A DNA stretch of 64,000 nt, from positions 3,312,199 to 3,376,198 of the forward strand of contig CM001633.1 of the NCBI GenBank assembly GCA_000309945.1, in the 5' to 3' direction. The notes under the pieces were generated by a model that was given only the letters and a program-made list of their open reading frames with translations, had not been told where the DNA came from and did no database searches. Position numbers and translations under genes: made by a program. The stretch's first letter is position 1, and every line of letters starts with the position of its first letter. The DNA comes from Leptolyngbyaceae cyanobacterium JSC-12. Its GTDB lineage: Bacteria; Cyanobacteriota; Cyanobacteriia; Leptolyngbyales; Leptolyngbyaceae. This document shows, in pieces, positions 1 through 12,302 of the stretch.

Positions 1-97
1 CGGACTTGAACAAGATTGAGAAGTTTTGGGCGCGGTTGAAACATTACCTGCGCAAGTCCCTCCATCAGTTTCCAATGTTGTGGGATGCTGTCGATGA

Positions 98-1554
98 CAC
101 GACTTGGCAAGTTACCCAGAAAGGAAAAAGATAAGCAGAAAATGTAGGAGACGTTAGCCGTAGCCGTATCATGCTGCCCTTTGTCGCTGTGCCATCGACG
201 ATTGCTCAAGAGTTTGGGAAATATCGAGACCTGTTCTGCCGAGGCGCAGGCTTTGAGCAGGTGAGTCGCTATGTGACCGGATTGCTGTTGAGTGAGAACA
301 AAACCTTGCAAGGGATTGCCGGACAATGGGTAGCAGGTGGGGAGGTCGGCGGACGAAGAGCGATGCACGCAGCGGTGTTTGAGGCGGGCTGGAGGAGTTC
401 AGAGTTAATGTCCCATCATCGTGCTGTGATAGCCAAAGAGCATCAGGGGCGAGGGCGAGAAGTCATCAGTCTGGATTGGACGCTCAGCCATCACGATTGG
501 GGCAAGCAGATCTTTGGGGTGAAGCGATCCTATGATTATGTGGAACATCGGATGAGTTGCTTTCAAACGGTGGTGACGGCGACGATTGCGAACCGCCACC
601 TAATTGATGGGATTGACGTGGTGGTGCAGTTTCCAGATTTTTCAGTGGCAGAACGGGAGTATCTGAAGGTGACGGCAAAATCCCCACTATGACGATTTAG
701 ACCAAGTGCGAGAACGACTGATTGAGATGTTGCATTATCACAAGAATCGATTGGAGTATCGCAAACGCACCGAGATTGCCGTCGAGATTGTGCGCCAAGT
801 GGAAGCGGAAGGACAATTTCCCACCGCCGATTATGCGTTTGACAATGGGGTGTTGACTGTTGAGTTAACCACCATGATTGAGTCCGCAGGAAAACACTGG
901 GTGAGTGAAGTTGAAAGTTCTCGCAACATCTTGTGGAATGACCAATGGCAACGGGTAGATGCGATTGGTTTAGAACTCAGAATCCATCACCCAGAGAGCT
1001 TTCGCCCGATTCAAGTCACTTGCCGCAACGGCGAAACGAAACCGATTTGGGCATTTACCAAAGTCGTGCGCCTCAAGAAGTTTGGACGCAAGCGATTGGT
1101 CATCGTCCACGAGCAAGCAGATTTACAAGACCCACCTCGCTTCCTGCTCACCGATGCGTTGCATTGGGAAAGTGGGCGAGTCATGCAGACTTGGAGTTAT
1201 CGATGGTCCTGCGAGGTCTTTCATGAGGTGAGCAAACAGCACACCGGGCTAGAGTCGGCTCAGGTGCGGAACGAGGAAGCGGTCAACCGTCACTTCCGTC
1301 TTAGTTGCGTGGCGCAGTCGATTCTGCAACGGACTGCCTGTTCTGGCGCACAATCTGAACGATTTGAGTTTGCTCAAGGCAAGCAAACGGTGGGACAGAA
1401 GCTCTATACCCTCACTCGTCAAGCCTTTGATGATTTGCTGCAATTCATTGTGACGCGATGTTCTCACGGACATACAAATGAACAGATTTTACAAGCTCTC
1501 CTCCCCAGTTGATTGGCGATCGTTTTTTCTACTTCGGTAACTTGCCAAGTTGTG
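98..1554 (+). mobile_element. IS4/IS701-like insertion sequence, copy 1
   Basis: The element is 1457 bp, with terminal inverted repeats CAC(G/A)ACTTGGCAAGTTACC at 98-116 and, inverted, at 1536-1554. It is flanked by a direct 7-bp repeat TCGATGA (91-97 and 1555-1561). Removing one repeat restores the IS630 reading frame, which supports these ends and this target duplication. A second copy lies inverted at 9045-10500 and differs, as far as I read, by one base. The family is inferred from the transposase; I did not compare it with an IS database. Confidence 0.88.
171..1512 (+). pseudogene. IS4/IS701-like transposase, frameshifted copy
   Basis: This is the same transposase as at 9087-10427, but one extra C in the C-run at 682-685 (four C here, three in the other copy) shifts the frame after residue 171. 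The result is a 173-aa N-terminal piece with the first catalytic Asp (ISLDW) and a separate 268-aa piece with the remaining DDE motifs. The copy is probably inactive unless frameshifting rescues it. A sequencing error in a homopolymer is also possible. Confidence 0.85.
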
Positions 1555-1654
1555 TCGATGATGTCTTCAGAAAACTGTCCTGACTACCCCTTCATCTGCA
1601 ATAGGGGGATTAATCCCTGATCCTTCTCCAGGACTAGAGGATATGCAGTCCAAT

Positions 1655-4345
1655 TCACAAGCTATTCCCAATCAAAATAAAGGGTGCCCAATAGTAAGGG
1701 TGAGAGAAGGCAGATCTCGCTTGGTTTGCACGGCTTCCTGGCTCGACTCGCACTTCTACATCGATTCGTGCTGGGGCATCTTTGGCAGTAGCATTCTCCT
1801 TTAGGAAACTCAATTGTGCCTGACGCAGGGCTTCCGCCTTAGTCATTTTGCCTGTAGCCAGGTGTTTGTAAAACCGCTGCATCAGCAGACTGGTGCTGGC
1901 GTCGTTCACTAACCAGAGCGAGGCGATGACGGATTTGACATTCTGGGTGAGAAAGTAATAGCTCAGCCCTGCGACTTCAATCCCTTCCTTGTCCTGGCCG
2001 CCTTTAGCGGTTTCGCAGGCCGAAAGTACAGCCAGATGGATGCTGCCCAGGTCACTCAGGTTGCGGATATCCGGCACCTTGAGCGGCTGGCCATTGCCCA
2101 ATACCAGAAAGGACTGCTCCGGGTCTTCGGAGACAAATTTGCCGTGGGTCGCGATGTGCAGAATCCGATAGTCGATCAGGTTTTTGAAGGCGGACAGGGT
2201 AAAGGCCTGATTGAGCAACTCACTGCCAGGAAAGACGCCCTTGGGGTCGGTGGCCTTGCTGCGAACGATGGTGTCCAGCTCCTCAGGCACATTGGGCAGG
2301 GCGCTAAACCCAGCAACCGCATTGGAAAGGCCCAGGCCCAGCACCGCGTTCTGGGCGGGATTGGCCGAGAGTTTGTCCGTTGTGTTGGTGAGGCCAGCGG
2401 TGAGGATGGTGGAAAGGGTGAAGCGCTGGACCAGGTATTGCTTGCCGTCGTGAAGGGCGGCCAGAGGCATGTAGCGGGTGGAACGGTCCAGGGAAAACAC
2501 CAGGTTTTGAATGCCATTGGCATCGAGTTGGGGCCGCAGGGGCGCCACCAGCCAGCCATAGAGCTTCTGGCTGACCTGTTGCAGTTGCTTGACATTACTG
2601 CGGGGGGTTTCCAGCAGGGTGCGGAACTGGGTCACGGTCTCTGACAATTGCTTCCGGGTTACGGGAACTTCCCGACTGGCAAAGGTGACGGCTTCCTTGC
2701 CCGCCTGCACGCCATAGACCAGCCAGAGTTTATCTTCCAGCACCAGGGGATAGATCAGCACCGTCTTGGGCTGGGCTTTGACGATATTGGCCGCGGCCAC
2801 GGTCAGCTCTTGCTGTTGCAGTTGGGCCGGGTCTTGACTGCCCTGCTGGCGGATCAGCCGCCGCAACCGCTCTGCCTGCTGGTTAAACTGCTGGGTGGCG
2901 GCAGCCCGTTGAGCCAGCAGTTGCTCCCGTTCCGGGCAGCGGGGTTGCTGGCTTTCGCAGTCCGTCAACTTTAAGCCCAGGGCAATCAGGGTATCAAAGG
3001 GCGGCTTGACCGGGGCTTCCACCGCATTCAGGGGCACCCCTTTGGTGGCTCCGCCAGCCCGGGTATCGCGGGTAAAATCGCGCAATTCCTGAATTTTCAG
3101 GAGTTCCAACACCTGCTGGGCCTCCAGCACCCGCCCTTGGGCCAGCAGCAGATCGGCCAATGCCCGATAGGTGCCAGCGACGGTTTGGGTGTAGGACTCT
3201 TGCAACTGGCGGGAGAGGGGCTTCAATCCGGTGCGGATGGTTTCTACCACATTCACCGACTCTTTGTAGAAGAGAATCGCCAACTCCGGTTGTTGTTGTT
3301 TTTCCAGGGCAACCGCAATGTTGTTCAGCGCAATGCGCTCCCCATCCGGGTCTTTGAGTTCCCGCGCGATGGCTAAGTGTTGCTCGTGATAGGCGATCGC
3401 TTGGGGGTAGTTGCCCAGGGCACGGTAGGCAAGTCCCAGATTGCCCAGGGCATTGCCTTCGCCCAGGCGGTCTTGGATTTCCCGGGCGATGGCTAAATGT
3501 TGCTCCTGATAGGCGATGGCTTTGGGGTAGTTGCCCAGGGAGAAGTAGGCAACTCCCAGATTGCCCAGGGCATTGCCTTCGCCCAGGCGGTCTTTGAGTT
3601 CCCGCGCGATGGCTAAACTTTGCTCCTGATAGGCGATCGCTTTGGGGTAGTTGCCCAGAGCACGGTAGGCATTGCCCAGATTGCCCAGGGCCTTGCCTTC
3701 GCCCAGGCGGTCTTTGAGTTCCCGCGCGATCGCTAAACGTTGCTCCTGATAGGCGATGGCTTTGGGGTAGTTGCCCAGGGAGAAGTAGGCATTGCCCAGA
3801 TTGCCCAGGGCATTGCCTTCGCCCAGGCGGTCTTTGATTTCCCGCAAGATAGCCAACGCCTGCTCGTGATAGGCGATCGCTTGGGGGTAGTTGCCCAGGG
3901 AGAAGTAGGCATTGCCCAGATTGCCCAGGGATTGGCCTTCGCCCTGGCGGTCTTTGATTTCCCGCAAGATAGCCAACGCCTGCTCGTGATAGGCGATCGC
4001 TTGGGGGTAGTTGCCCAGGGCGTGGTAGGCAAGTCCCAGATTGCCCAGGGCGTTGCCTTCGCCCTGGCGGTCTTGGATTTGCCGATAGAGGCTCAATGCC
4101 TGTTGCCAGGATTGCAAGGCCGCTTCAAACTGGCTGGTCTGGAATTGCTCAATGCCCTGCTGCAAGAGGCGGTCTGCCTCGGCTTTGCGGCGGTCGGTTT
4201 GGGCGATTCGCCCTGGCTGCTGGTTGCCAAGATCGGCCGCGATGGCGCCTTCCACTACACCAGGCACCATCCCAGCGGAAATTGAGGAACTCAGACACAG
4301 GCCAAGCGTGGCAAAAGTCAAGCGAACAGACTTGCGGCGCTGCAT
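1655..4345 (-). CDS. Exported TPR-CHAT caspase-like protein A
   Basis: About 896 aa from the ATG at 4345. I prefer this start because MQRRKSVRLTFATLGLCLSS then begins a signal peptide. The N-terminal half has about eight TPR-like units, six of them near-identical 40-residue repeats built on GEGNALGNLGxAYxxLGNYPKAIAYxEQ. The C-terminal half is a CHAT domain (clan CD peptidase fold) with the His motif HIATHG and the Cys motif VLSACETAKGG, so the catalytic dyad is present. CHAT proteins of this architecture are common in cyanobacteria. Some relatives act as proteases released by a partner through the TPR region, but the substrate here is unknown. It lies between two inverted IS copies with a second paralogue 1.9 kb away. 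Confidence 0.88.
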   Translation of the reverse strand: MQRRKSVRLTFATLGLCLSSSISAGMVPGVVEGAIAADLGNQQPGRIAQTDRRKAEADRLLQQGIEQFQTSQFEAALQSWQQALSLYRQIQDRQGEGNALGNLGLAYHALGNYPQAIAYHEQALAILREIKDRQGEGQSLGNLGNAYFSLGNYPQAIAYHEQALAILREIKDRLGEGNALGNLGNAYFSLGNYPKAIAYQEQRLAIARELKDRLGEGKALGNLGNAYRALGNYPKAIAYQEQSLAIARELKDRLGEGNALGNLGVAYFSLGNYPKAIAYQEQHLAIAREIQDRLGEGNALGNLGLAYRALGNYPQAIAYHEQHLAIARELKDPDGERIALNNIAVALEKQQQPELAILFYKESVNVVETIRTGLKPLSRQLQESYTQTVAGTYRALADLLLAQGRVLEAQQVLELLKIQELRDFTRDTRAGGATKGVPLNAVEAPVKPPFDTLIALGLKLTDCESQQPRCPEREQLLAQRAAATQQFNQQAERLRRLIRQQGSQDPAQLQQQELTVAAANIVKAQPKTVLIYPLVLEDKLWLVYGVQAGKEAVTFASREVPVTRKQLSETVTQFRTLLETPRSNVKQLQQVSQKLYGWLVAPLRPQLDANGIQNLVFSLDRSTRYMPLAALHDGKQYLVQRFTLSTILTAGLTNTTDKLSANPAQNAVLGLGLSNAVAGFSALPNVPEELDTIVRSKATDPKGVFPGSELLNQAFTLSAFKNLIDYRILHIATHGKFVSEDPEQSFLVLGNGQPLKVPDIRNLSDLGSIHLAVLSACETAKGGQDKEGIEVAGLSYYFLTQNVKSVIASLWLVNDASTSLLMQRFYKHLATGKMTKAEALRQAQLSFLKENATAKDAPARIDVEVRVEPGSRANQARSAFSHPYYWAPFILIGNSL
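3343..4062 (-). repeat. Six tandem 120-bp TPR-coding units in protein A
   Basis: The 120-bp unit, recognisable from the plus-strand string attgcccagggcattgcctt, recurs six times with few differences, many of them silent. The boundaries are approximate. Near identity at DNA level suggests recent expansion or conversion. The same unit type is found in the neighbouring TPR-CHAT gene. Confidence 0.85.
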
Positions 4346-4566
4346 CCAGAACCCCCCCCCGGTGGAGAAACTCATCAACAATCTATCACTCTCGCCCAGG
4401 GGAGGTTATGCACAAATTGAGCAGGTTAGACCTTTACAGTGGACGATAGCGAACTGAGTAAGCCAGATTTTCAAGTTCTCCCACCTGAGCAATCCTTCTA
4501 AGTCTCTGATGCAATCTCCAGGTTACTAACAGTTGATGGGCATAGATTCACCTGGGACATCTTGCC

Positions 4567-4594
4567 CCCCTGCTCCCAACTCTGGGAGCAGGGG
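4567..4594. repeat. 12-bp inverted repeat in the 4346-4806 gap
   Basis: CCCCTGCTCCCA and TGGGAGCAGGGG are perfectly complementary around a 4-base loop. No T-run follows on either strand, so it is not a clear terminator. The rest of the 460-bp gap between the divergent TPR-CHAT A and Uma2 genes shows no further gene. It presumably holds both promoters. Confidence 0.6.
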
Positions 4595-4772
4595 CTGGGG
4601 GATGAGGGGGAGCGGCGGTGAAACATGTGCCGCCGCGTTGTTTACAATAAGGGCTGTCTACCCTGTTGATTGCAAGTAAGCCTTGCCGCAGCCCAATCGG
4701 CTACTGATGGTTAAGGGAGGTGTAATGAGAACCCTCGCTGAATGCCGCTAGCAGTGATGCCAGCCAGCTCAA

Positions 4773-4802
4773 TCTATCTGAGGTCAGTCTATCTGAGGTC
4801 AA
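4773..4802 (+). repeat. Two tandem 15-bp repeats carrying GAGG motifs
   Basis: TCTATCTGAGGTCAG is directly followed by TCTATCTGAGGTCAA. The second unit supplies the GAGG ribosome-binding site (4795-4798), eight bases before the Uma2 ATG at 4807. The first unit carries a second GAGG 15 bases upstream. Confidence 0.7.
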
Positions 4803-4806
4803 TGCT

Positions 4807-5379
4807 ATGTCGGTTACTACCAAGCCCATGACCCTTGAGGAATACCTGAACTATGACGATGGCACCGATACCCGCTACGAGCTGGTCAACGGGGAACTGA
4901 TTACCATGCCACCAGAGAGTCGCCTGAACGTCAAAATTGCCATCTTTCTGCTGACCCAGTTTGTTCGCCTGGGCATTCCTGAAAACCAGGTCGCAATGAA
5001 AACACAAATTGCTGTGAGCGGATTGCGGGCTACAGTCAGGGAGCCTGATTTGATGGTGTTGTCAGAAGCGGCTGCGTCCTCCTTGGAGGGAGCCAGACAA
5101 TCTCTCATTACCCACGATATGCCGCCGCCGTTGCTGGTGGTGGAAGTCGTTAGCCCCGGGCAGGAGAACCAGGATTATCGCTACAAGCGCACGGAGTACG
5201 CGGGACGGCACATTCCTGAATATTGGATTGTAGACCCGATCGCCCAGAAAGTGACCATCCTGGAATGGGTGGATGGACTGTATGAAGAGCAGGTTTACCA
5301 GGGGGATACGGCGATCGTCTCACCGCTGTTCCCGACGTTGAGTTTGACGGCGGCAACCGTTCTCAGTGCCGGATGTTAA
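4807..5379 (+). CDS. Uma2 family (DUF820) putative endonuclease
   Basis: A 190-aa protein with the complete Uma2 layout: N-terminal [20 protein letters not shown], the PDLMVLS acidic motif near residue 80, then LVVEVVSPG and [19 protein letters not shown]. This family has a PD-(D/E)XK nuclease fold and is abundant in cyanobacteria, often as many divergent copies. Nuclease activity is inferred from the fold and the biological role is not known. The start is supported by GAGG eight bases upstream. The gene is convergent with the DUF4058 gene and lies between the two IS copies. Confidence 0.85.
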
Positions 5380-5407
5380 TAGGGAGAACCGGAAACGGGG
5401 CATTCTG

Positions 5408-6199
5408 CTATCCCTTGCCAGCGTTGGAGGCTATGCACTGTTGCACCCAGAGGCGATCGCCCTCTGACAACGGCGGTTCTGGCACTGGTTGGGTGTAGTC
5501 AACCCGTAGATCGAAATTGCCCTGCTCATAAACAGTGTGCAACAGTGGTTGTAAATCCACCATCAGCGGGCTATCTTCTGGCTTTAAGGGCAGGGAAAAG
5601 CTGGGAATGCGATCGCGCAGATTGAAGCCATACAACTCTGCCTGGGGGCGTTGGGCCGCATCACTCACCAAAATGCGATAATCCCAAACGCCCCTCACGC
5701 CTGACACTGGCATAGGCTGGAAGGCCCGCAGTAAATCAATTTCCACCAGGTGGGTTTGACTCTCAACAATTGCCTGCCGTTTCTTCAGATAGCTGATGCG
5801 TCCATCCCCCCGCTTATTTTTAGGCGATAGCACCTCAATTACAGTGATGACCTCATGGGTTTTCACCGTGCGCACTTCTAGAAACCGTTCTTTCACTGCG
5901 ATTGGCTCTGCCAGTTGCACCCGTTGAGGTTGTGGCTGAGGAATTTCAACGGTGGCAAGGGTAGCCGTTGCAGCTTGACCCTGGGTGGTTGAGGCAAACA
6001 CGATGGCGTCTGGAATGCCGACCAACACCCCGTCCGATTCATCTTCCAAGTAGGTTCGGGTTTCAATGGCCGCATAGTATTTGGGGCGGAGTCGTGCCCC
6101 CAGATCATTGGCAAGTGCCACAATCAGGCGATTATGTACCTCTCTCCAGATAAAAGCGTCTTCTAGATAGGGATTCATCCCTGGAAAGGGCGAGGGCAT
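5408..6199 (-). CDS. DUF4058 family protein
   Basis: About 263 aa. It starts MPSPFPGMNPYLED, the typical beginning of cyanobacterial DUF4058 proteins, and contains the conserved IEVLSPKNKRGDGRISYLKKR stretch in the middle, which resembles a nuclease-like core. The function of the family is not established. I prefer the ATG at 6199 over 6208 because GGA lies about nine bases upstream. It ends close to the Uma2 gene on the other strand. Uma2 and DUF4058 genes are both frequent in cyanobacterial accessory regions. Confidence 0.82.
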   Translation of the reverse strand: MPSPFPGMNPYLEDAFIWREVHNRLIVALANDLGARLRPKYYAAIETRTYLEDESDGVLVGIPDAIVFASTTQGQAATATLATVEIPQPQPQRVQLAEPIAVKERFLEVRTVKTHEVITVIEVLSPKNKRGDGRISYLKKRQAIVESQTHLVEIDLLRAFQPMPVSGVRGVWDYRILVSDAAQRPQAELYGFNLRDRIPSFSLPLKPEDSPLMVDLQPLLHTVYEQGNFDLRVDYTQPVPEPPLSEGDRLWVQQCIASNAGKG

Positions 6200-6244
6200 T
6201 GTTGTCATTCCAAGTGGCTGGTGTCCTCAGTATATCGCTGGTGC

Positions 6245-8917
6245 CTACTCCGCCTCTCCGATTAAGGTAAAGGCTGCCCAATGAAGTGGATCAGAGTATT
6301 TTTGTTTGGTCGTCAGCATTGCCTGTCGCAGAGCCTGCGCTTTATCGTTGGTTGTTCTCAAGTTCTTGTAAAACTCCGTCATCAGAAATGCCGTCGAGTC
6401 ATCGGGAACTTTCCATAAAGACACGACGATACTGGGCACACCCGCCGTAATCAACGATCGCGACAACCCAATTACCCCATCGCCGGTAATCGTGCCCCGT
6501 CCCGTATCGCAGGCACTCAAGACCACCAGTTCCGCATTCAGCCTCATATCCAGGATTTCGGCGGCGGTGAGTAAGCCATCGTTGAGTTCCCCAGTGCCAG
6601 CAGGAGCCAGAGCGATCGCCCCCGGCACCCCCAAGCCTTTGGTGTCATCCAATAATCCATGGGTGGCCAGGTGAATGATGCGGGCCTGCGGCATTTGTTG
6701 GGCGATCGCGGCTTTCGTTGCCTGCGCTCCAGTGATGGCTTGGGTGTTGAACAGTTTGGCAATTTCCAACGCCTCCTGCTTGGCTCCCGGCAGATCAGAC
6801 AACTGCACAGGCGTATCCCCCAGTTGTGTCACCACCTTGGGCATCGTCGGATTCCCGACAATCAACGCATTTTGCATTTTGCGTTTTGAATGTTGCATCG
6901 CCTGCCGTTGCTGCCGGGTCAATTCCAATACTTGAATCGACGGTGCCGTGAGGATGGTGTGTTGCTCAATCAAGGCTGTGCCCCTGGCATCCAGCAAAGC
7001 CGGAAAAGGAACCAGAAAGAGCTCACCCTGCGGCATGAAAATCACCCGCTGATTGGGGTCTTGGGGCAGCAGATCGGCGATCGGGGCAATCAATAACCCA
7101 TGCAGTTGCTTCAGATTGCGCGTCTGCTGGGCTTGCAGGCGTTGCACCTGCTCTGGTGTCTGGGCAACCCACACATCTGACCGCCCCCTGGCACCCATCG
7201 CCTCCCGGCTGTGCACTACCAGATCTGCCAGGGATGAATTTTGCTGCTGCCACAAAGGTTTCAGATCCACTGTGCGGAAGCCGATTTCTCCCGTGGGCGG
7301 AATCACCCAGATGTAAAGTTCAGACTGGCGAGCTTCTTGTTTATCCCGAATCTTGAACTCGTCGAAGATTATGGAATACTGTACCAGAGTTGCATTTTGC
7401 GCCTTGGCAATCTGTTGAATCTGAGCAACGGATGGGGAAACCGCTAAAGCCGAACGAGCCGCCTGTTTCTCCGTTTCCGCCACTTTAGCATCCGTTGCCA
7501 TCCGCTGCGCCAACAACTCCACAAACGCCCTGGCCCGTCCCCGCTCAGCAATTTCTAATGCCCTATTCGTCTTGTTTTGCGCCACTAGAACTCGCTGCAA
7601 GGTGCGATAGGTGCGAGCTTGCTGTTCAAAGATGGAGATTTTTTGGGCATCATTGCCCACCCCGGTTTGGCGCAACAACTCCCAAACGGCAATGCCATCG
7701 AAGAGGGTCTTCTCAGCAGCAGTCAATTTGCCCGATTTCAAGAGGGCCAGTCCCAGATTGTTCAGGGATCGGCCTTCGCCCTCGCGGTTTTGGATTGCCC
7801 GCGCGATCGCTAAACTTTGCTCGTGATAGGCGATCGCTTGGGGGTAGTTGTCCAGGGAGAAGTAGGCATTGCCCAGATTGCCCAGGGCATTGCCTTCGCC
7901 CCGGCGGTCTTTGATTTCCCGCGCGATCGCTAAACGTTGCTCGTGATAGGCGATCGCTTTGGGGTAGTTGCCCAGGGCGTCGTAGGCATTGCCCAGATTG
8001 CCCAGGGCATTGCCTTCGCCCTGGCGGTCTTTGATTTCCCGCGCGATCGCTAAACTCTGCTTTTGATACTCAATTGCTTTGGCATAGTCGCCGAGAGAAA
8101 AGTAAGCAATGCCCAGACTGCCCAGAGACTGACCTTCTCCGTGGCGGTCTTTGATTTCCTGCACGATCGCTAACCGTTGTTCATGATACTCGATCGCTTT
8201 GCCATAGTTGCCCACCGCATGATAAGCAATGCTCAGATTGCCCAGGGCAGTGCTTTCGCCGAGACGGTCTTTGATTTCTCGCGCAATCGCTAAATACTGT
8301 TCGTTAAGCTCAATCGCTTTGGCATGGTTGCCCACAGCATGGTAAGCAAGTCCCAGATTGCCTAGGGATTGGCTTTCGTTCTGGCGATCTTTGATTTCCC
8401 GCGCAATCGCTAAAGTTTGAGCCAGATATTCAATCGCTTTGGCATAGTTGCCCACAGCCCCGTAAGCAATGCCTAGATTGCCCAGGGCATTGCCTTCCCC
8501 CCGTCGGTCTTTGATTTCCCGCGCGATCGCTAAACGTTGCTCCTGATAGGCGATCGCTTTGCCATAGTTGCTCAGAGAGAAGTAAGCCAGTCCCAAATTG
8601 CCCAGGGCGTTTCCTTCCCCTAATCGGTCTTTGATTTCCCGATAAATCTGTAACGCCTGCTGCCAGGAATTAAAGGCGGATTCAAACTGACTGGTTTGAT
8701 ATTGCTGGATGCCTCGTTGAAGCAAGCGATCCGCCTCGGCTTTGCGATCTTGTGTGATTTGGGCAGTGGCGGGGCGGAGAAGAGGGGAGGTAGGAAAGAG
8801 GAGAGATATAGAGAAGATGGGGAGGTGGGGGAGGAGTAATAGGAACCATAGGAAGCGGCTCTGCCTGCTGCGGTTCGTGAGCCTCGCCGATCGACCTTCT
8901 GTCTTCTGCCTGCTCAT
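6245..8917 (-). CDS. Exported TPR-CHAT caspase-like protein B
   Basis: About 890 aa from the ATG at 8917. The N-terminus has a basic stretch followed by the hydrophobic segment FLWFLLLLPHLPIFSISLLF, a signal peptide or anchor. About nine 40-residue TPR units follow, then a helical linker. The C-terminal CHAT domain has the His motif HLATHGLLDD and the Cys motif VVLSACDTGRGT, so both catalytic residues are present. The order and repeat type match protein A, but the linker and CHAT sequence are clearly different, so the two are diverged paralogues rather than a fresh duplication. No dedicated substrate gene is recognisable beside it. Confidence 0.88.
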   Translation of the reverse strand: MSRQKTEGRSARLTNRSRQSRFLWFLLLLPHLPIFSISLLFPTSPLLRPATAQITQDRKAEADRLLQRGIQQYQTSQFESAFNSWQQALQIYREIKDRLGEGNALGNLGLAYFSLSNYGKAIAYQEQRLAIAREIKDRRGEGNALGNLGIAYGAVGNYAKAIEYLAQTLAIAREIKDRQNESQSLGNLGLAYHAVGNHAKAIELNEQYLAIAREIKDRLGESTALGNLSIAYHAVGNYGKAIEYHEQRLAIVQEIKDRHGEGQSLGSLGIAYFSLGDYAKAIEYQKQSLAIAREIKDRQGEGNALGNLGNAYDALGNYPKAIAYHEQRLAIAREIKDRRGEGNALGNLGNAYFSLDNYPQAIAYHEQSLAIARAIQNREGEGRSLNNLGLALLKSGKLTAAEKTLFDGIAVWELLRQTGVGNDAQKISIFEQQARTYRTLQRVLVAQNKTNRALEIAERGRARAFVELLAQRMATDAKVAETEKQAARSALAVSPSVAQIQQIAKAQNATLVQYSIIFDEFKIRDKQEARQSELYIWVIPPTGEIGFRTVDLKPLWQQQNSSLADLVVHSREAMGARGRSDVWVAQTPEQVQRLQAQQTRNLKQLHGLLIAPIADLLPQDPNQRVIFMPQGELFLVPFPALLDARGTALIEQHTILTAPSIQVLELTRQQRQAMQHSKRKMQNALIVGNPTMPKVVTQLGDTPVQLSDLPGAKQEALEIAKLFNTQAITGAQATKAAIAQQMPQARIIHLATHGLLDDTKGLGVPGAIALAPAGTGELNDGLLTAAEILDMRLNAELVVLSACDTGRGTITGDGVIGLSRSLITAGVPSIVVSLWKVPDDSTAFLMTEFYKNLRTTNDKAQALRQAMLTTKQKYSDPLHWAAFTLIGEAE
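7780..8620 (-). repeat. Seven tandem 120-bp TPR-coding units in protein B
   Basis: The units at the 3' side of the array (low coordinates) match those of gene A most closely, for example the GNYPKAIAYHEQRLAIAREIKDR type. Units toward the N-terminus are more varied. This gradient suggests that conversion or expansion has acted on part of the array. Ends are approximate. Confidence 0.8.
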
Positions 8918-9044
8918 CCGGGGGCGCATGGTGAAATTCTCCTGGGGTAATAGTTCATCGAATCTTTGGATTCTGCCGTCTGGTGCAAGATGACGTGGTA
9001 TGACACTCAGGAGTTTCGATCACAGAGACGGTTAAGCGATTGAA

Positions 9045-10500
9045 CACAACTTGGCAAGTTACCGAAGTAGAAAAAACGATCGCCAATCAACTGGGGAGGA
9101 GAGCTTGTAAAATCTGTTCATTTGTATGTCCGTGAGAACATCGCGTCACAATGAATTGCAGCAAATCATCAAAGGCTTGACGAGTGAGGGTATAGAGCTT
9201 CTGTCCCACCGTTTGCTTGCCTTGAGCAAACTCAAATCGTTCAGATTGTGCGCCAGAACAGGCAGTCCGTTGCAGAATCGACTGCGCCACGCAACTAAGA
9301 CGGAAGTGACGGTTGACCGCTTCCTCGTTCCGCACCTGAGCCGACTCTAGCCCGGTGTGCTGTTTGCTCACCTCATGAAAGACCTCGCAGGACCATCGAT
9401 AACTCCAAGTCTGCATGACTCGCCCACTTTCCCAATGCAACGCATCGGTGAGCAGGAAGCGAGGTGGGTCTTGTAAATCTGCTTGCTCGTGGACGATGAC
9501 CAATCGCTTGCGTCCAAACTTCTTGAGGCGCACGACTTTGGTAAATGCCCAAATCGGTTTCGTTTCGCCGTTGCGGCAAGTGACTTGAATCGGGCGAAAG
9601 CTCTCTGGGTGATGGATTCTGAGTTCTAAACCAATCGCATCTACCCGTTGCCATTGGTCATTCCACAAGATGTTGCGAGAACTTTCAACTTCACTCACCC
9701 AGTGTTTTCCTGCGGACTCAATCATGGTGGTTAACTCAACAGTCAACACCCCATTGTCAAACGCATAATCGGCGGTGGGAAATTGTCCTTCCGCTTCCAC
9801 TTGGCGCACAATCTCGACGGCAATCTCGGTGCGTTTGCGATACTCCAATCGATTCTTGTGATAATGCAACATCTCAATCAGTCGTTCTCGCACTTGGTCT
9901 AAATCGTCATAGTGGGATTTTGCCGTCACCTTCAGATACTCCCGTTCTGCCACTGAAAAATCTGGAAACTGCACCACCACGTCAATCCCATCAATTAGGT
10001 GGCGGTTCGCAATCGTCGCCGTCACCACCGTTTGAAAGCAACTCATCCGATGTTCCACATAATCATAGGATCGCTTCACCCCAAAGATCTGCTTGCCCCA
10101 ATCGTGATGGCTGAGCGTCCAATCCAGACTGATGACTTCTCGCCCTCGCCCCTGATGCTCTTTGGCTATCACAGCACGATGATGGGACATTAACTCTGAA
10201 CTCCTCCAGCCCGCCTCAAACACCGCTGCGTGCATCGCTCTTCGTCCGCCGACCTCCCCACCTGCTACCCATTGTCCGGCAATCCCTTGCAAGGTTTTGT
10301 TCTCACTCAACAGCAATCCGGTCACATAGCGACTCACCTGCTCAAAGCCTGCGCCTCGGCAGAACAGGTCTCGATATTTCCCAAACTCTTGAGCAATCGT
10401 CGATGGCACAGCGACAAAGGGCAGCATGATACGGCTACGGCTAACGTCTCCTACATTTTCTGCTTATCTTTTTCCTTTCTGGGTAACTTGCCAAGTCGTG
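9045..10500 (-). mobile_element. IS4/IS701-like insertion sequence, copy 2 (intact)
   Basis: The element is 1456 bp, inverted relative to copy 1, with the same inverted-repeat ends (CACAACTTGGCAAGTTACC at 9045-9063 and its partner ending at 10500). The flanks, gattgaa on the left and acgacac on the right, do not match, so no target duplication is visible. The missing duplication suggests a rearrangement or deletion after insertion. Confidence 0.85.
9087..10427 (-). CDS. IS4/IS701-like DDE transposase
   Basis: A 446-aa intact transposase. DDE-type motifs are visible: ISLDWTLSHH around residue 103, YAFDNGVL around 210, and the C-terminal YRWSCEVFHEVSK with its catalytic Glu, which resembles the Y-R-E-K signature of the IS4 superfamily. 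It catalyses cut-and-paste movement of the element and could also mobilise the frameshifted copy 1 or the whole 10-kb segment between the outer ends. Family assignment between IS4 and IS701 is from memory and not certain. Confidence 0.85.
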   Translation of the reverse strand: MLPFVAVPSTIAQEFGKYRDLFCRGAGFEQVSRYVTGLLLSENKTLQGIAGQWVAGGEVGGRRAMHAAVFEAGWRSSELMSHHRAVIAKEHQGRGREVISLDWTLSHHDWGKQIFGVKRSYDYVEHRMSCFQTVVTATIANRHLIDGIDVVVQFPDFSVAEREYLKVTAKSHYDDLDQVRERLIEMLHYHKNRLEYRKRTEIAVEIVRQVEAEGQFPTADYAFDNGVLTVELTTMIESAGKHWVSEVESSRNILWNDQWQRVDAIGLELRIHHPESFRPIQVTCRNGETKPIWAFTKVVRLKKFGRKRLVIVHEQADLQDPPRFLLTDALHWESGRVMQTWSYRWSCEVFHEVSKQHTGLESAQVRNEEAVNRHFRLSCVAQSILQRTACSGAQSERFEFAQGKQTVGQKLYTLTRQAFDDLLQFIVTRCSHGHTNEQILQALLPS

Positions 10501-10949
10501 ACGACACCCTAACAACACTCTATAAAAACACTACCGTGCACCCCTCAAAGCGATTCAGGGAAAGGATTTCAGGCTGCGCGACACGTCCCACACGCTTAGA
10601 TCACCAACATTTAGGAAAAAATTTTTTACCCCACTGCACCATCGTGAGAAATTAACGGAAATTCCAGAATTCTCAGAATTTCCAGGAATTCTCCAATTTC
10701 TCGGAACATGGCGTTTTCATGCCTCTAAGCTCATTAACGTGTGTTCAAGACGGATTTTTAAGTAATCTGGTCATGTTGCTCTACTTTTACTTAGACCCTT
10801 AAACAACAAGGTTTGCACACAGTATTTTGAGTGGAATGATCCACAACAGTATGCATTTGGTTGAAACCATCCACTTGGGTTAAAGCAATTTCCAGTTACA
10901 AACCTTAAGGCTTGTAAGTCAGACTGAACTTAAATCGAATGTAGTTGGG
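10501..10949. other. Non-coding gap between IS copy 2 and the integrase
   Basis: No convincing gene is present in this 449-bp stretch. It holds a set of nested inverted repeats (10646-10702) and a 15-bp direct repeat (10875-10889 and 10945-10959), described separately. Downstream of an integrase, such repeats could be recombinase or excisionase sites, but this is inference. Confidence 0.5.
10646..10702. repeat. Nested inverted repeats around an AGAATTCT core
   Basis: The outer arms are GAGAAATT (10646-10653) and AATTTCTC (10695-10702). The inner arms are GGAAATTC (10657-10664) and GAATTTCC (10676-10683), with the palindrome AGAATTCT between the inner arms. The layered dyad symmetry is more than expected for plain AT-rich DNA. 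Confidence 0.6.
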
Positions 10950-10959
10950 TTAAAGCAAT
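10875..10959. repeat. 15-bp direct repeat TTGGGTTAAAGCAAT at the integrase 3' end
   Basis: Identical copies lie at 10875-10889 and 10945-10959, 70 bp apart. The second overlaps the integrase stop codon. They could be arm-type sites or the trace of a small duplication. Confidence 0.6.
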
Positions 10960-12086
10960 GGTACAGAGTGTGATTCAGTGACTTGTGCATAGACCCGATC
11001 CACCATTTCTACTGAGTTTCCAATCCACTCAGCTACTTGGATAGACGGCACATTTAAACTTCTGCAATGAGAAACAAAACTATGACGCATCTGATAGGGA
11101 TTGCGATACTCAATCTCAGGGAGCTTGCTTAATACCGACTTCCACGCTCTGTTAGTGAAGTTGTTCCACTGGATGTAAGTTCCTTTGACAGAAGGAAACA
11201 CCAATGATTCATCATCACTCCTTTCCATCCCCACGAGAATGGCTCGAAGCTGTTCATTAACAGGAAAACGCCTACAATTCTGTGTCTTCAATCCCTGTTT
11301 GGTTTGGTAACCTGTGACCGTATCGACCCGACTTTTCTCAAACAAAATGTAATTTGCTTTGACGTGCCCCCATTGGAGCGGGACTACTTCACTAGGACGG
11401 GCACCCGTGAAAAATAGGAATGCTACCAGGTTGGCATAGTGCTGATAGTGGAGATCGTTCCTAAATGCCTGAATGATTTGGTCACGCTCTGCTCTGCTGA
11501 ATGGATGAATTTCATCCTCTACCGTTCCTCGCTGTGGCAGTTTCACCGCCGCTGCCGCTCCCAAGAATGGGTTGTCTGTGAGCAGTCCTGATTTTTGTGC
11601 CCACTTTGCACACGCGCAAAACTGAGTGAGCAGTCGTTTTTGAACATCTGGACTCAATTTGGCGATCGCGTCCAAAATCGCTTGGGGTTGTCGCGTGTCC
11701 TTCGTAGGTAATCGGTCGATGTGGCGAGTTACCCAGTTGTACTGTCTAATCGTGCTGGGTGATTTACCCAAATTTCTAACCTCTAAATATTGCTGCCACA
11801 ACTGGCTAAGAGGTGGGGCTTTTACCGTGGGCAATTCTGATAAAGAGACATTTTCCCCACGTAAAAATTCTCGGTATTGATCTAATTTCTCTAGATTGAA
11901 GCGACCATACTGGATTTCTCGTGTCAGCCATAAAGCGCGGTCATTGGCTAGCTTTTGATGGTAGGGAGTATTCCTCAATCCCAATGCTAACGAGTACCGC
12001 TCACCCTGGTATGTCCACAGGAGGCGAAGGGAACCATTGCAGTTATTGAATTGAACCGTTCCCCGTTCTGCACGTCTTTTTGGCAT
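10950..12086 (-). CDS. Tyrosine recombinase / phage-type integrase
   Basis: A 378-aa protein with a core-binding domain (about 90-185) and a catalytic domain. The motifs FTGARPSEVVPLQW (first Arg), YQMRHSFVSH (second Arg; Tyr replaces the first His of HxxR) and WIGNSVEMVDRVYAQV (catalytic Tyr) are visible. Such integrases insert elements at tRNA genes. Its start is 144 bp from the 3' end of tRNA-Thr(UGU), and it is transcribed away from the tRNA, the usual layout at one end of an integrated element. The expected duplicate of the tRNA 3' end was not found in the window. The start ATG is followed by a basic MPKRRAERG. Confidence 0.88.
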   Translation of the reverse strand: MPKRRAERGTVQFNNCNGSLRLLWTYQGERYSLALGLRNTPYHQKLANDRALWLTREIQYGRFNLEKLDQYREFLRGENVSLSELPTVKAPPLSQLWQQYLEVRNLGKSPSTIRQYNWVTRHIDRLPTKDTRQPQAILDAIAKLSPDVQKRLLTQFCACAKWAQKSGLLTDNPFLGAAAAVKLPQRGTVEDEIHPFSRAERDQIIQAFRNDLHYQHYANLVAFLFFTGARPSEVVPLQWGHVKANYILFEKSRVDTVTGYQTKQGLKTQNCRRFPVNEQLRAILVGMERSDDESLVFPSVKGTYIQWNNFTNRAWKSVLSKLPEIEYRNPYQMRHSFVSHCRSLNVPSIQVAEWIGNSVEMVDRVYAQVTESHSVPLL

Positions 12087-12229
12087 AGCTTTAGATCAAA
12101 ACTGAGATCAAAAGTCTATACAAACTACTTCAAAACGGCACAAAATAATACAACAGTCTTATAGTTCAAGCTTACTGAACAACTGTCTAAAACCGTTGCT
12201 GTAAGGCGAAACCACCGCTATTTCTACAA

Positions 12230-12302
12230 AGCTGGTGACAAGACTCGAACTTGCGACCGGCTGATTACAAATCAGCTGCTCTACCAACTGAGCTACACCA
12301 GC
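12230..12302 (-). tRNA. tRNA-Thr (anticodon UGU)
   Basis: Read on the minus strand it forms a full cloverleaf: acceptor GCTGGTG/CACCAGC, D-arm GCTCAGTTGGTAGAGC, anticodon stem CTGAT/ATCAG with loop TTTGTAA giving anticodon UGU, and T-arm with TTCGAGT. The CCA end is not encoded. It sits at the boundary between accessory DNA (left) and conserved genes (right) and is the likely attachment site for the adjacent integrase. Confidence 0.95.

What the first reader, a model, noticed from the sequence alone, without database searches (positions are those of the whole stretch)
10950..12302. tRNA-Thr(UGU) as the border of an integrated element
An integrase lies immediately beyond the tRNA 3' end, transcribed away from it. 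All genes to the left are accessory and all genes to the right are conserved. The left end and the repeated tRNA 3' segment are not in the window.
Basis: partly seen in the sequence, partly recalled or inferred. Interest (0 to 1): 0.5.

Follow-up and report, generated by a model that had tools for sequence, protein, structure and literature searches.

The report
Small tRNA-inserted element split by inversion
A small mobile DNA element sits in a threonine tRNA gene of a cyanobacterium, but a flip of about 615,000 bases between two copies of a jumping gene appears to have torn it in two, so that its other end lies far away and faces the wrong way.

Summary
The tRNA-Thr(UGU) (12230-12302, minus) and the intact tyrosine integrase (10950-12086, minus) are real, and the tRNA is an attachment site. 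The second copy of the tRNA 3' half lies 621 kb to the RIGHT, inverted. The window holds only 1.8 kb of the element (10501-12274); the other 6 kb (VapE-like primase-helicase, excisionase-like HTH, small genes) is at chromosome 3939435-3945463. A congener has the element unbroken (6.49 kb period, tRNA 3' half at both ends), and our halves join in it exactly at a 6-bp IS target duplication. The IS at 9045-10500 and the IS at the edge of the other half carry exchanged duplications (attgaa|acgaca and acgaca|attgaa), the only reciprocal pair among 63 copies, of which 53 have matched ones. So recombination between inverted IS copies flipped about 615 kb and split the element; an assembly mis-join at these identical IS copies would look the same and is not excluded. 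Genes left of 9045 are not its cargo. Related integrases lie beside this tRNA in 7 of 30 genomes read: it is a used integration site. Ordinary parts, unusual arrangement.

The parts
12230..12302 (-). tRNA-Thr(UGU), whole gene; attachment site
   Evidence: ARAGORN, Rfam 72.4 bits
12217..12274 (-). att core: tRNA nt 29-73 plus about 13 bases beyond the tRNA 3' end; second copy at chromosome 3945405-3945463, inverted
10950..12086 (-). tyrosine recombinase (integrase), 378 aa, intact
   Evidence: Pfam Phage_integrase 34 bits, PHROG integrase E 7.9e-41, conserved residues in 7 aligned integrases
10501..12274 (.). integrase-side part of the element; the rest is at chromosome 3939435-3945463
   Evidence: alignment to the unbroken element of G002, L042; junction letters
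9045..10500 (-). IS copy (1456 bp, IS701-like transposase at 9087-10427 minus) at the inversion junction
9039..9044 (+). left flank attgaa of the IS; equals the right flank of the IS copy at 3937979-3939434 read in IS orientation
10501..10506 (+). right flank acgaca of the IS; equals the left flank of the same distant IS copy
1..9044 (.). DNA beyond the inversion junction (an IS copy, two TPR-CHAT genes, DUF4058, Uma2); not part of the element

Best explanation
A small integrative element (period about 6.3 kb without IS copies) entered the chromosome by integrase-mediated recombination at the 3' half of tRNA-Thr(UGU), leaving the tRNA whole and a copy of its 3' half at the far end. It encodes a tyrosine integrase, a VapE-like primase-helicase, an excisionase-like HTH protein, an RHH protein and three proteins without a clear family, so most likely it can leave as a circle, replicates with its own primase-helicase and depends on a helper for transfer. 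IS copies then entered it, one of them inside the VapE gene. Homologous recombination between the other one and an oppositely oriented copy elsewhere flipped about 615 kb. The integrase end stayed at the window; the VapE end is 621 kb away with its att core inverted. The element is now trapped: the integrase acting on its two cores would flip the segment, not excise it. Shown: att repeat, integrase, unbroken element in a congener, exchanged IS duplications. Inferred: circle, replication, helper, order of the events, trapping, and that the inversion is in the cell and not only in the assembly.
For: Second tRNA 3' half, 59 bases at 97%, inverted. Congener G002: unbroken element with tRNA 3' halves at 1-52 and 6491-6542 of L042, integrase 89% identical; window 10501-10876 maps to L042 1991-1616 and the distant half begins at L042 1985, an overlap that contains the 6-bp duplication. 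IS flanks: 53 of 63 copies have matched duplications, and the window copy and 3939434 are the only reciprocal exchange, in opposite orientation. Second breakpoint: in congener G001 the best matches of the Uma2 genes from the two sides lie 146 bp apart in the predicted order and orientation. Related integrases beside the same tRNA in 7 of 30 loci, this genome included.
Against: An exchange of two identical 1456-bp IS copies by the assembler would give the same sequence, and no reads or second strain were available. The inversion is not symmetric about dnaN, and GC skew was uninformative. No relative was found with ndhD or the methyltransferase beside tRNA-Thr, so the empty site is not shown. 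In G001 the TPR-CHAT and DUF4058 genes are missing between the two Uma2 genes, and its TPR-CHAT matches are on other contigs. Some unmatched IS copies remain unexplained. Nothing here shows excision, replication or a helper.
Confidence: 0.8

Rival explanations
1. The element is split only in the assembly: two identical IS copies were exchanged, and in the cell the element is whole beside the tRNA.
For: The IS copies are 100% identical over 1456 bp; the inversion is not symmetric about dnaN; the strain and its sequencing method were not identified.
Against: The genome is one contig and 53 of 63 IS copies have matched duplications, so the repeats were in general resolved. A 1.46-kb repeat is short for long reads (general knowledge).
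Confidence: 0.13
2. The element is an integrative plasmid, not a satellite-like element that uses a helper phage.
For: The best VapE relatives found are on Nostoc plasmids (42%), one of which carries relaxase and MobC genes; 5.8- and 6.3-kb cyanobacterial plasmids carry a VapE gene.
Against: No relaxase or other transfer gene was recognised among the seven element proteins scanned, but the two views differ mainly in what moves the element, which sequence does not show. PHROG and phage matches of VapE and integrase exist as well.
Confidence: 0.35
3. One reading: one large island stretches left from the tRNA, with the genes at 1-9044 as cargo.
For: The genes at 1-9044 are of accessory kinds.
Against: No copy of the tRNA end lies to the left: the only other place is to the right. 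The unbroken element of G002 has none of these genes. ORFs that read as housekeeping genes lie just left of the window.
Confidence: 0.01
4. The tRNA fragment near ndhD is the end of a different, independently integrated element, unrelated to the integrase in the window.
For: Lone tRNA-Thr 3' fragments occur in relatives (9 of 39 genomes by my criterion).
Against: The two halves are adjacent in G002 and meet at one 6-bp site that both IS flanks carry.
Confidence: 0.01

Closest known systems
[quoted passage not shown]
   Same: Size (PICMI115 is 6110 bp), integrase, small HTH regulator/excisionase, primase with DUF5906, a few unknown genes.
   Different: PICMIs are described from Vibrionaceae and inserted in fis; this one is in a cyanobacterium and in tRNA-Thr, with a VapE-type protein. 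No helper or packaging is known here.
tRNA-integrated islands with tyrosine integrase, including tycheposons (named as marine satellites in PMC11389934, passages read; other features recalled)
   Same: Insertion at the 3' half of a tRNA, tRNA restored, integrase next to it, tRNA 3' copy at the far end.
   Different: Far shorter gene set; here the far end was moved and inverted by an IS inversion. No direct comparison with tycheposon proteins was made.
Cyanobacterial plasmids with VapE-domain proteins (Nostoc sp. ATCC 53789 pNsp_l and others)
   Same: Best relatives found for the primase-helicase (42% over 95% of it).
   Different: About 34-49 kb circular records for the four Nostoc ones with at least 95% cover, against a 6.5-kb integrated element.
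Chromosomal inversions between inverted IS copies (general knowledge)
   Same: Two oppositely oriented IS copies with exchanged target duplications.
   Different: One of the two copies lay inside an integrated element, so the element was split and one att core inverted.

Membership tests
tRNA-integrated mobile element | Whole tRNA gene at one end | tested here: met
tRNA-integrated mobile element | Tyrosine recombinase gene beside the tRNA 3' end | tested here: met
tRNA-integrated mobile element | Direct repeat of the tRNA 3' end at the far end, in this genome as assembled | tested here: not met
   The repeat exists but is inverted and 621 kb away; explained by the IS exchange
tRNA-integrated mobile element | Direct repeat of the tRNA 3' end at the far end, in the unbroken congener element | tested here: met
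   L042 1-52 and 6491-6542, same orientation
tRNA-integrated mobile element | Present in some relatives and absent in others at the same site | tested here: met
   Related integrase in 7 of 30 loci with 1.5-kb flanks or less; other integrase types were not looked for
PICMI | Integrase PF00589 | tested here: met
PICMI | AlpA (PF05930 or PF12728) | tested here: inconclusive
   HTH_17 PF12728 22.2 bits, under the cut-off of 27
PICMI | Primase with DUF3987 and DUF5906 | tested here: inconclusive
   DUF5906 27.3 bits against 27.6; DUF3987 not listed at E 0.05; VapE-like domain 265.8 bits
PICMI | Inserted in fis of Vibrionaceae | tested here: not met
   Inserted in tRNA-Thr; same genus as a Leptolyngbyaceae MAG
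PICMI | Packaged by a helper phage | not testable with these tools
   Needs an experiment
Tycheposon | Its hallmark genes | not tested
   No tycheposon sequences compared
IS701 family (the IS at the junction) | Transposase over the curated NCBIfam score | tested here: not met
   96.5 bits against cut-off 150; duplications of 6-8 bp, 4 bp recalled for IS701

The most novel reading that the evidence does not exclude
The 6.3-6.5 kb element is the first seen of a family of minimal satellite-like integrative elements of Leptolyngbyaceae that use tRNA-Thr(UGU); and in this strain its intact integrase now has two att cores 621 kb apart in inverted orientation, so it could flip a ninth of the chromosome back and forth.
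Probability: 0.2. Interest if true: 0.6.

Novelty: new member of a known kind. Interest (0 to 1): 0.4.

Why it matters
It shows why an island can seem to have no second end: an IS inversion can carry that end hundreds of kilobases away and turn it round, and exchanged IS duplications recover the link. It also gives a comparable set of tRNA-Thr(UGU) insertions in Leptolyngbyaceae, including an unbroken 6.5-kb one, in which minimal mobile elements of filamentous cyanobacteria could be tested.

Tried and rejected
A large island to the left of the tRNA: rejected, the only other copy of the tRNA end is to the right. ndhD or the methyltransferase beside tRNA-Thr in relatives: not found in the loci read, so the empty site stays unproven. 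GC skew and strand of long ORFs in 44 stretches of 20 kb: no usable signal. Symmetry about dnaN: none. Relatives in viral contigs: none for the VapE and integrase queries (these find close relatives only). Integrase in phage records: 53 with a match, the best listed at 31%. Defence families in six element proteins: only a borderline match of the HTH protein to a methyltransferase model (E 0.001). Literature: the listings (titles and beginnings of abstracts seen) named no paper on this element; from these listings only PMC10803314 and PMC11389934 were opened, in passages.

Full report
Observation. The window is bases 3312199-3376198 of a single-contig genome of 5,530,391 bp. Its one tRNA is tRNA-Thr(TGT), 12230-12302 minus. 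The integrase ORF, 10950-12086 minus, begins 143 bp beyond the tRNA 3' end. It matches Phage_integrase (34 bits) and Arm-DNA-bind_2 (22.9 bits) and PHROG integrases. In an alignment of seven related integrases the R of TGxRPxE, the K of LKTQ, the RH of YQxRH, the W before GNS (xWxGNS) and the Y near the C terminus are kept in all seven (reading them as catalytic residues is general knowledge).

Where the second end is. The 20-base tRNA end occurs twice in the genome, here and at 3945429-3945448 on the other strand. The match extends over 59 bases at 97% (3945405-3945463). It covers tRNA nt 29-73 and a dozen bases beyond, with a one-base gap. ARAGORN finds no tRNA there. The gene beyond it reads as ndhD (named from its translation). 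The two cores are 621 kb apart and inverted, which simple integration cannot give.

The other half. Between that core and an IS at 3937979-3939434 lie small ORFs, HTH-like ORFs and a VapE-like protein. The VapE gene is interrupted near its start by another IS copy (3941511-3942966), which has matched duplications.

The congener. G002, placed in the same genus, has a 6,910-bp contig (L042). By its length and identical match coordinates it is JACYLN010000117.1, a contig of the MAG Leptolyngbyaceae cyanobacterium C42_A2020_001. It carries tRNA 3' halves at 1-52 and 6491-6542, an integrase 89% identical to ours, and an uninterrupted VapE gene. Window 10501-10876 aligns to L042 1991-1616, and our distant half begins at L042 1985. 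The overlap holds the IS duplication: GGTGTCGT ends one half, TGTCGTAGTG begins the other, and the congener reads GGTGTCGTAGTG. So the halves are one element. From these coordinates I calculate a period of about 6.3 kb for ours without IS copies, against 6.49 kb in G002. The L042 contig begins inside the tRNA; the other part of that tRNA is at the start of contig C56 (L043).

How it was split. The IS end occurs 63 times. I read the flanks of all 63. The script found matched duplications of 6-8 bp for 53. Of the other ten, two had no right end within the script's reach; one of these and its neighbour (2467696, 2466234) look like a tandem pair whose outer flanks match by eye (ttccatt). The copy in the window (attgaa left, acgaca right) and the copy at 3939434 (acgaca left, attgaa right) are the only reciprocal pair and are in opposite orientation. 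My arithmetic, with equal base frequencies: 28 pairs of eight unmatched copies times 4 to the power -12 gives about 2 in a million expected. Two further one-sided matches of 6 and 7 bp (120239 with 4985261; 4985261 with 298682) suggest more IS rearrangements. The remaining unmatched copies (352944, 2753987, 2755908) are unexplained.

The second breakpoint. Before the inversion, the Uma2 gene left of the distant IS (L038 12356 on) would have faced window DNA left of 9044. In G001, another genome of the genus (84% complete, 840 contigs), the best match of that gene (C273 4699-5241) and the best match of the window's Uma2 gene (C273 5387-5966) are neighbours in the predicted order and orientation. 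The TPR-CHAT and DUF4058 genes are missing between them, and TPR-CHAT matches lie on other contigs, so this is support and not proof.

What the element is. Seven element proteins were scanned (six from G002, one from this genome): integrase; VapE-like primase-helicase (265.8 bits; DUF5906 27.3 bits, just under its cut-off); HTH_17/excisionase-like (under the Pfam cut-off); a 181-aa protein without a clear family; RHH_5 (37.9 bits); two without families. No capsid protein was recognised; a weak match of the HTH protein to a small-terminase PHROG (E 0.0009) ranks below its excisionase match (E 1.2e-5). VapE has its best plasmid matches in Nostoc (42%) and in phages matches over about half of it in the ten rows listed of 684 records. 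This fits a minimal satellite or an integrative plasmid; I cannot tell which.

The site in relatives. Of 39 genomes searched (this one included), 38 had a match to the tRNA region. In the 30 loci read, flanks of 1.5 kb or less, 7 have a related integrase, this genome included; the one in G022 matches in two pieces and may be broken. Nine of 39 genomes have a separate 3' half (criterion applied: match starting at query base 26 or later, reaching base 82 or beyond, at least 94% identical, contig-edge matches left out). In G002, G015 (18.3 kb) and G035 (66 kb) the two copies lie on one contig in direct orientation; in G035 no related integrase was found beside the tRNA. In G014, G015 and G021 an ORF related to the excisionase-like HTH protein lies near the integrase (31-40%), but no VapE relative was found there. 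Neighbouring genes differ: a DUF3987 primase, a GmrSD-like and an HNH protein in G015, a D5/DUF5906 primase and a putative excisionase in G014, a TrbI-like protein under the cut-off in G021. FACHB-502 (L093) also has a related integrase beside tRNA-Thr.

Limits. An assembler's exchange of two identical IS copies would give the same picture; I put this at 0.13. Skew and symmetry do not help. The empty site was not found in a relative. Mobility, replication and trapping are inferred. Correction to notebook entry 4: it says that 10 IS copies have a 36-bp duplicated right end; the table shows 8 of 1492 bp.

Noticed in passing
window 98-1554 and 9045-10500; 63 left ends in G000: Abundant IS with a transposase below the IS701 cut-off, duplications of 6-8 bp and, in 8 of 63 copies, a 36-bp repeated right end. 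It may deserve its own family or group.
   Followed up: partly
G000 120239, 298682, 4985261, 352944, 2753987, 2755908: IS copies with unmatched flanks; the first three are linked by one-sided 6-7 bp matches, which points to further IS-mediated rearrangements.
   Followed up: partly
window 171-692 and 706-1512: The IS copy at 98-1554 is 1457 bp long and its transposase frame is broken in two, unlike the copy at 9045-10500.
   Followed up: no
window 1655-4381 and 6245-8929: Two long TPR-CHAT proteins with 120-base repeat units; a CHAT C-terminal remnant lies at L038 10675-10915.
   Followed up: no
L038 101-3285: Three RAMP-superfamily proteins in a row, as in type III CRISPR systems.
   Followed up: no
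L044 15724-19235 (G015): GmrSD-like and HNH proteins downstream of a related integrase, with weak matches to defence models such as HEC-05.
   Followed up: partly
L147, L148 (Cyanobacterium aponinum plasmids, 5.8 and 6.3 kb): Small plasmids of similar size with a VapE protein about 30% identical to the element's and a TnpB gene.
   Followed up: no
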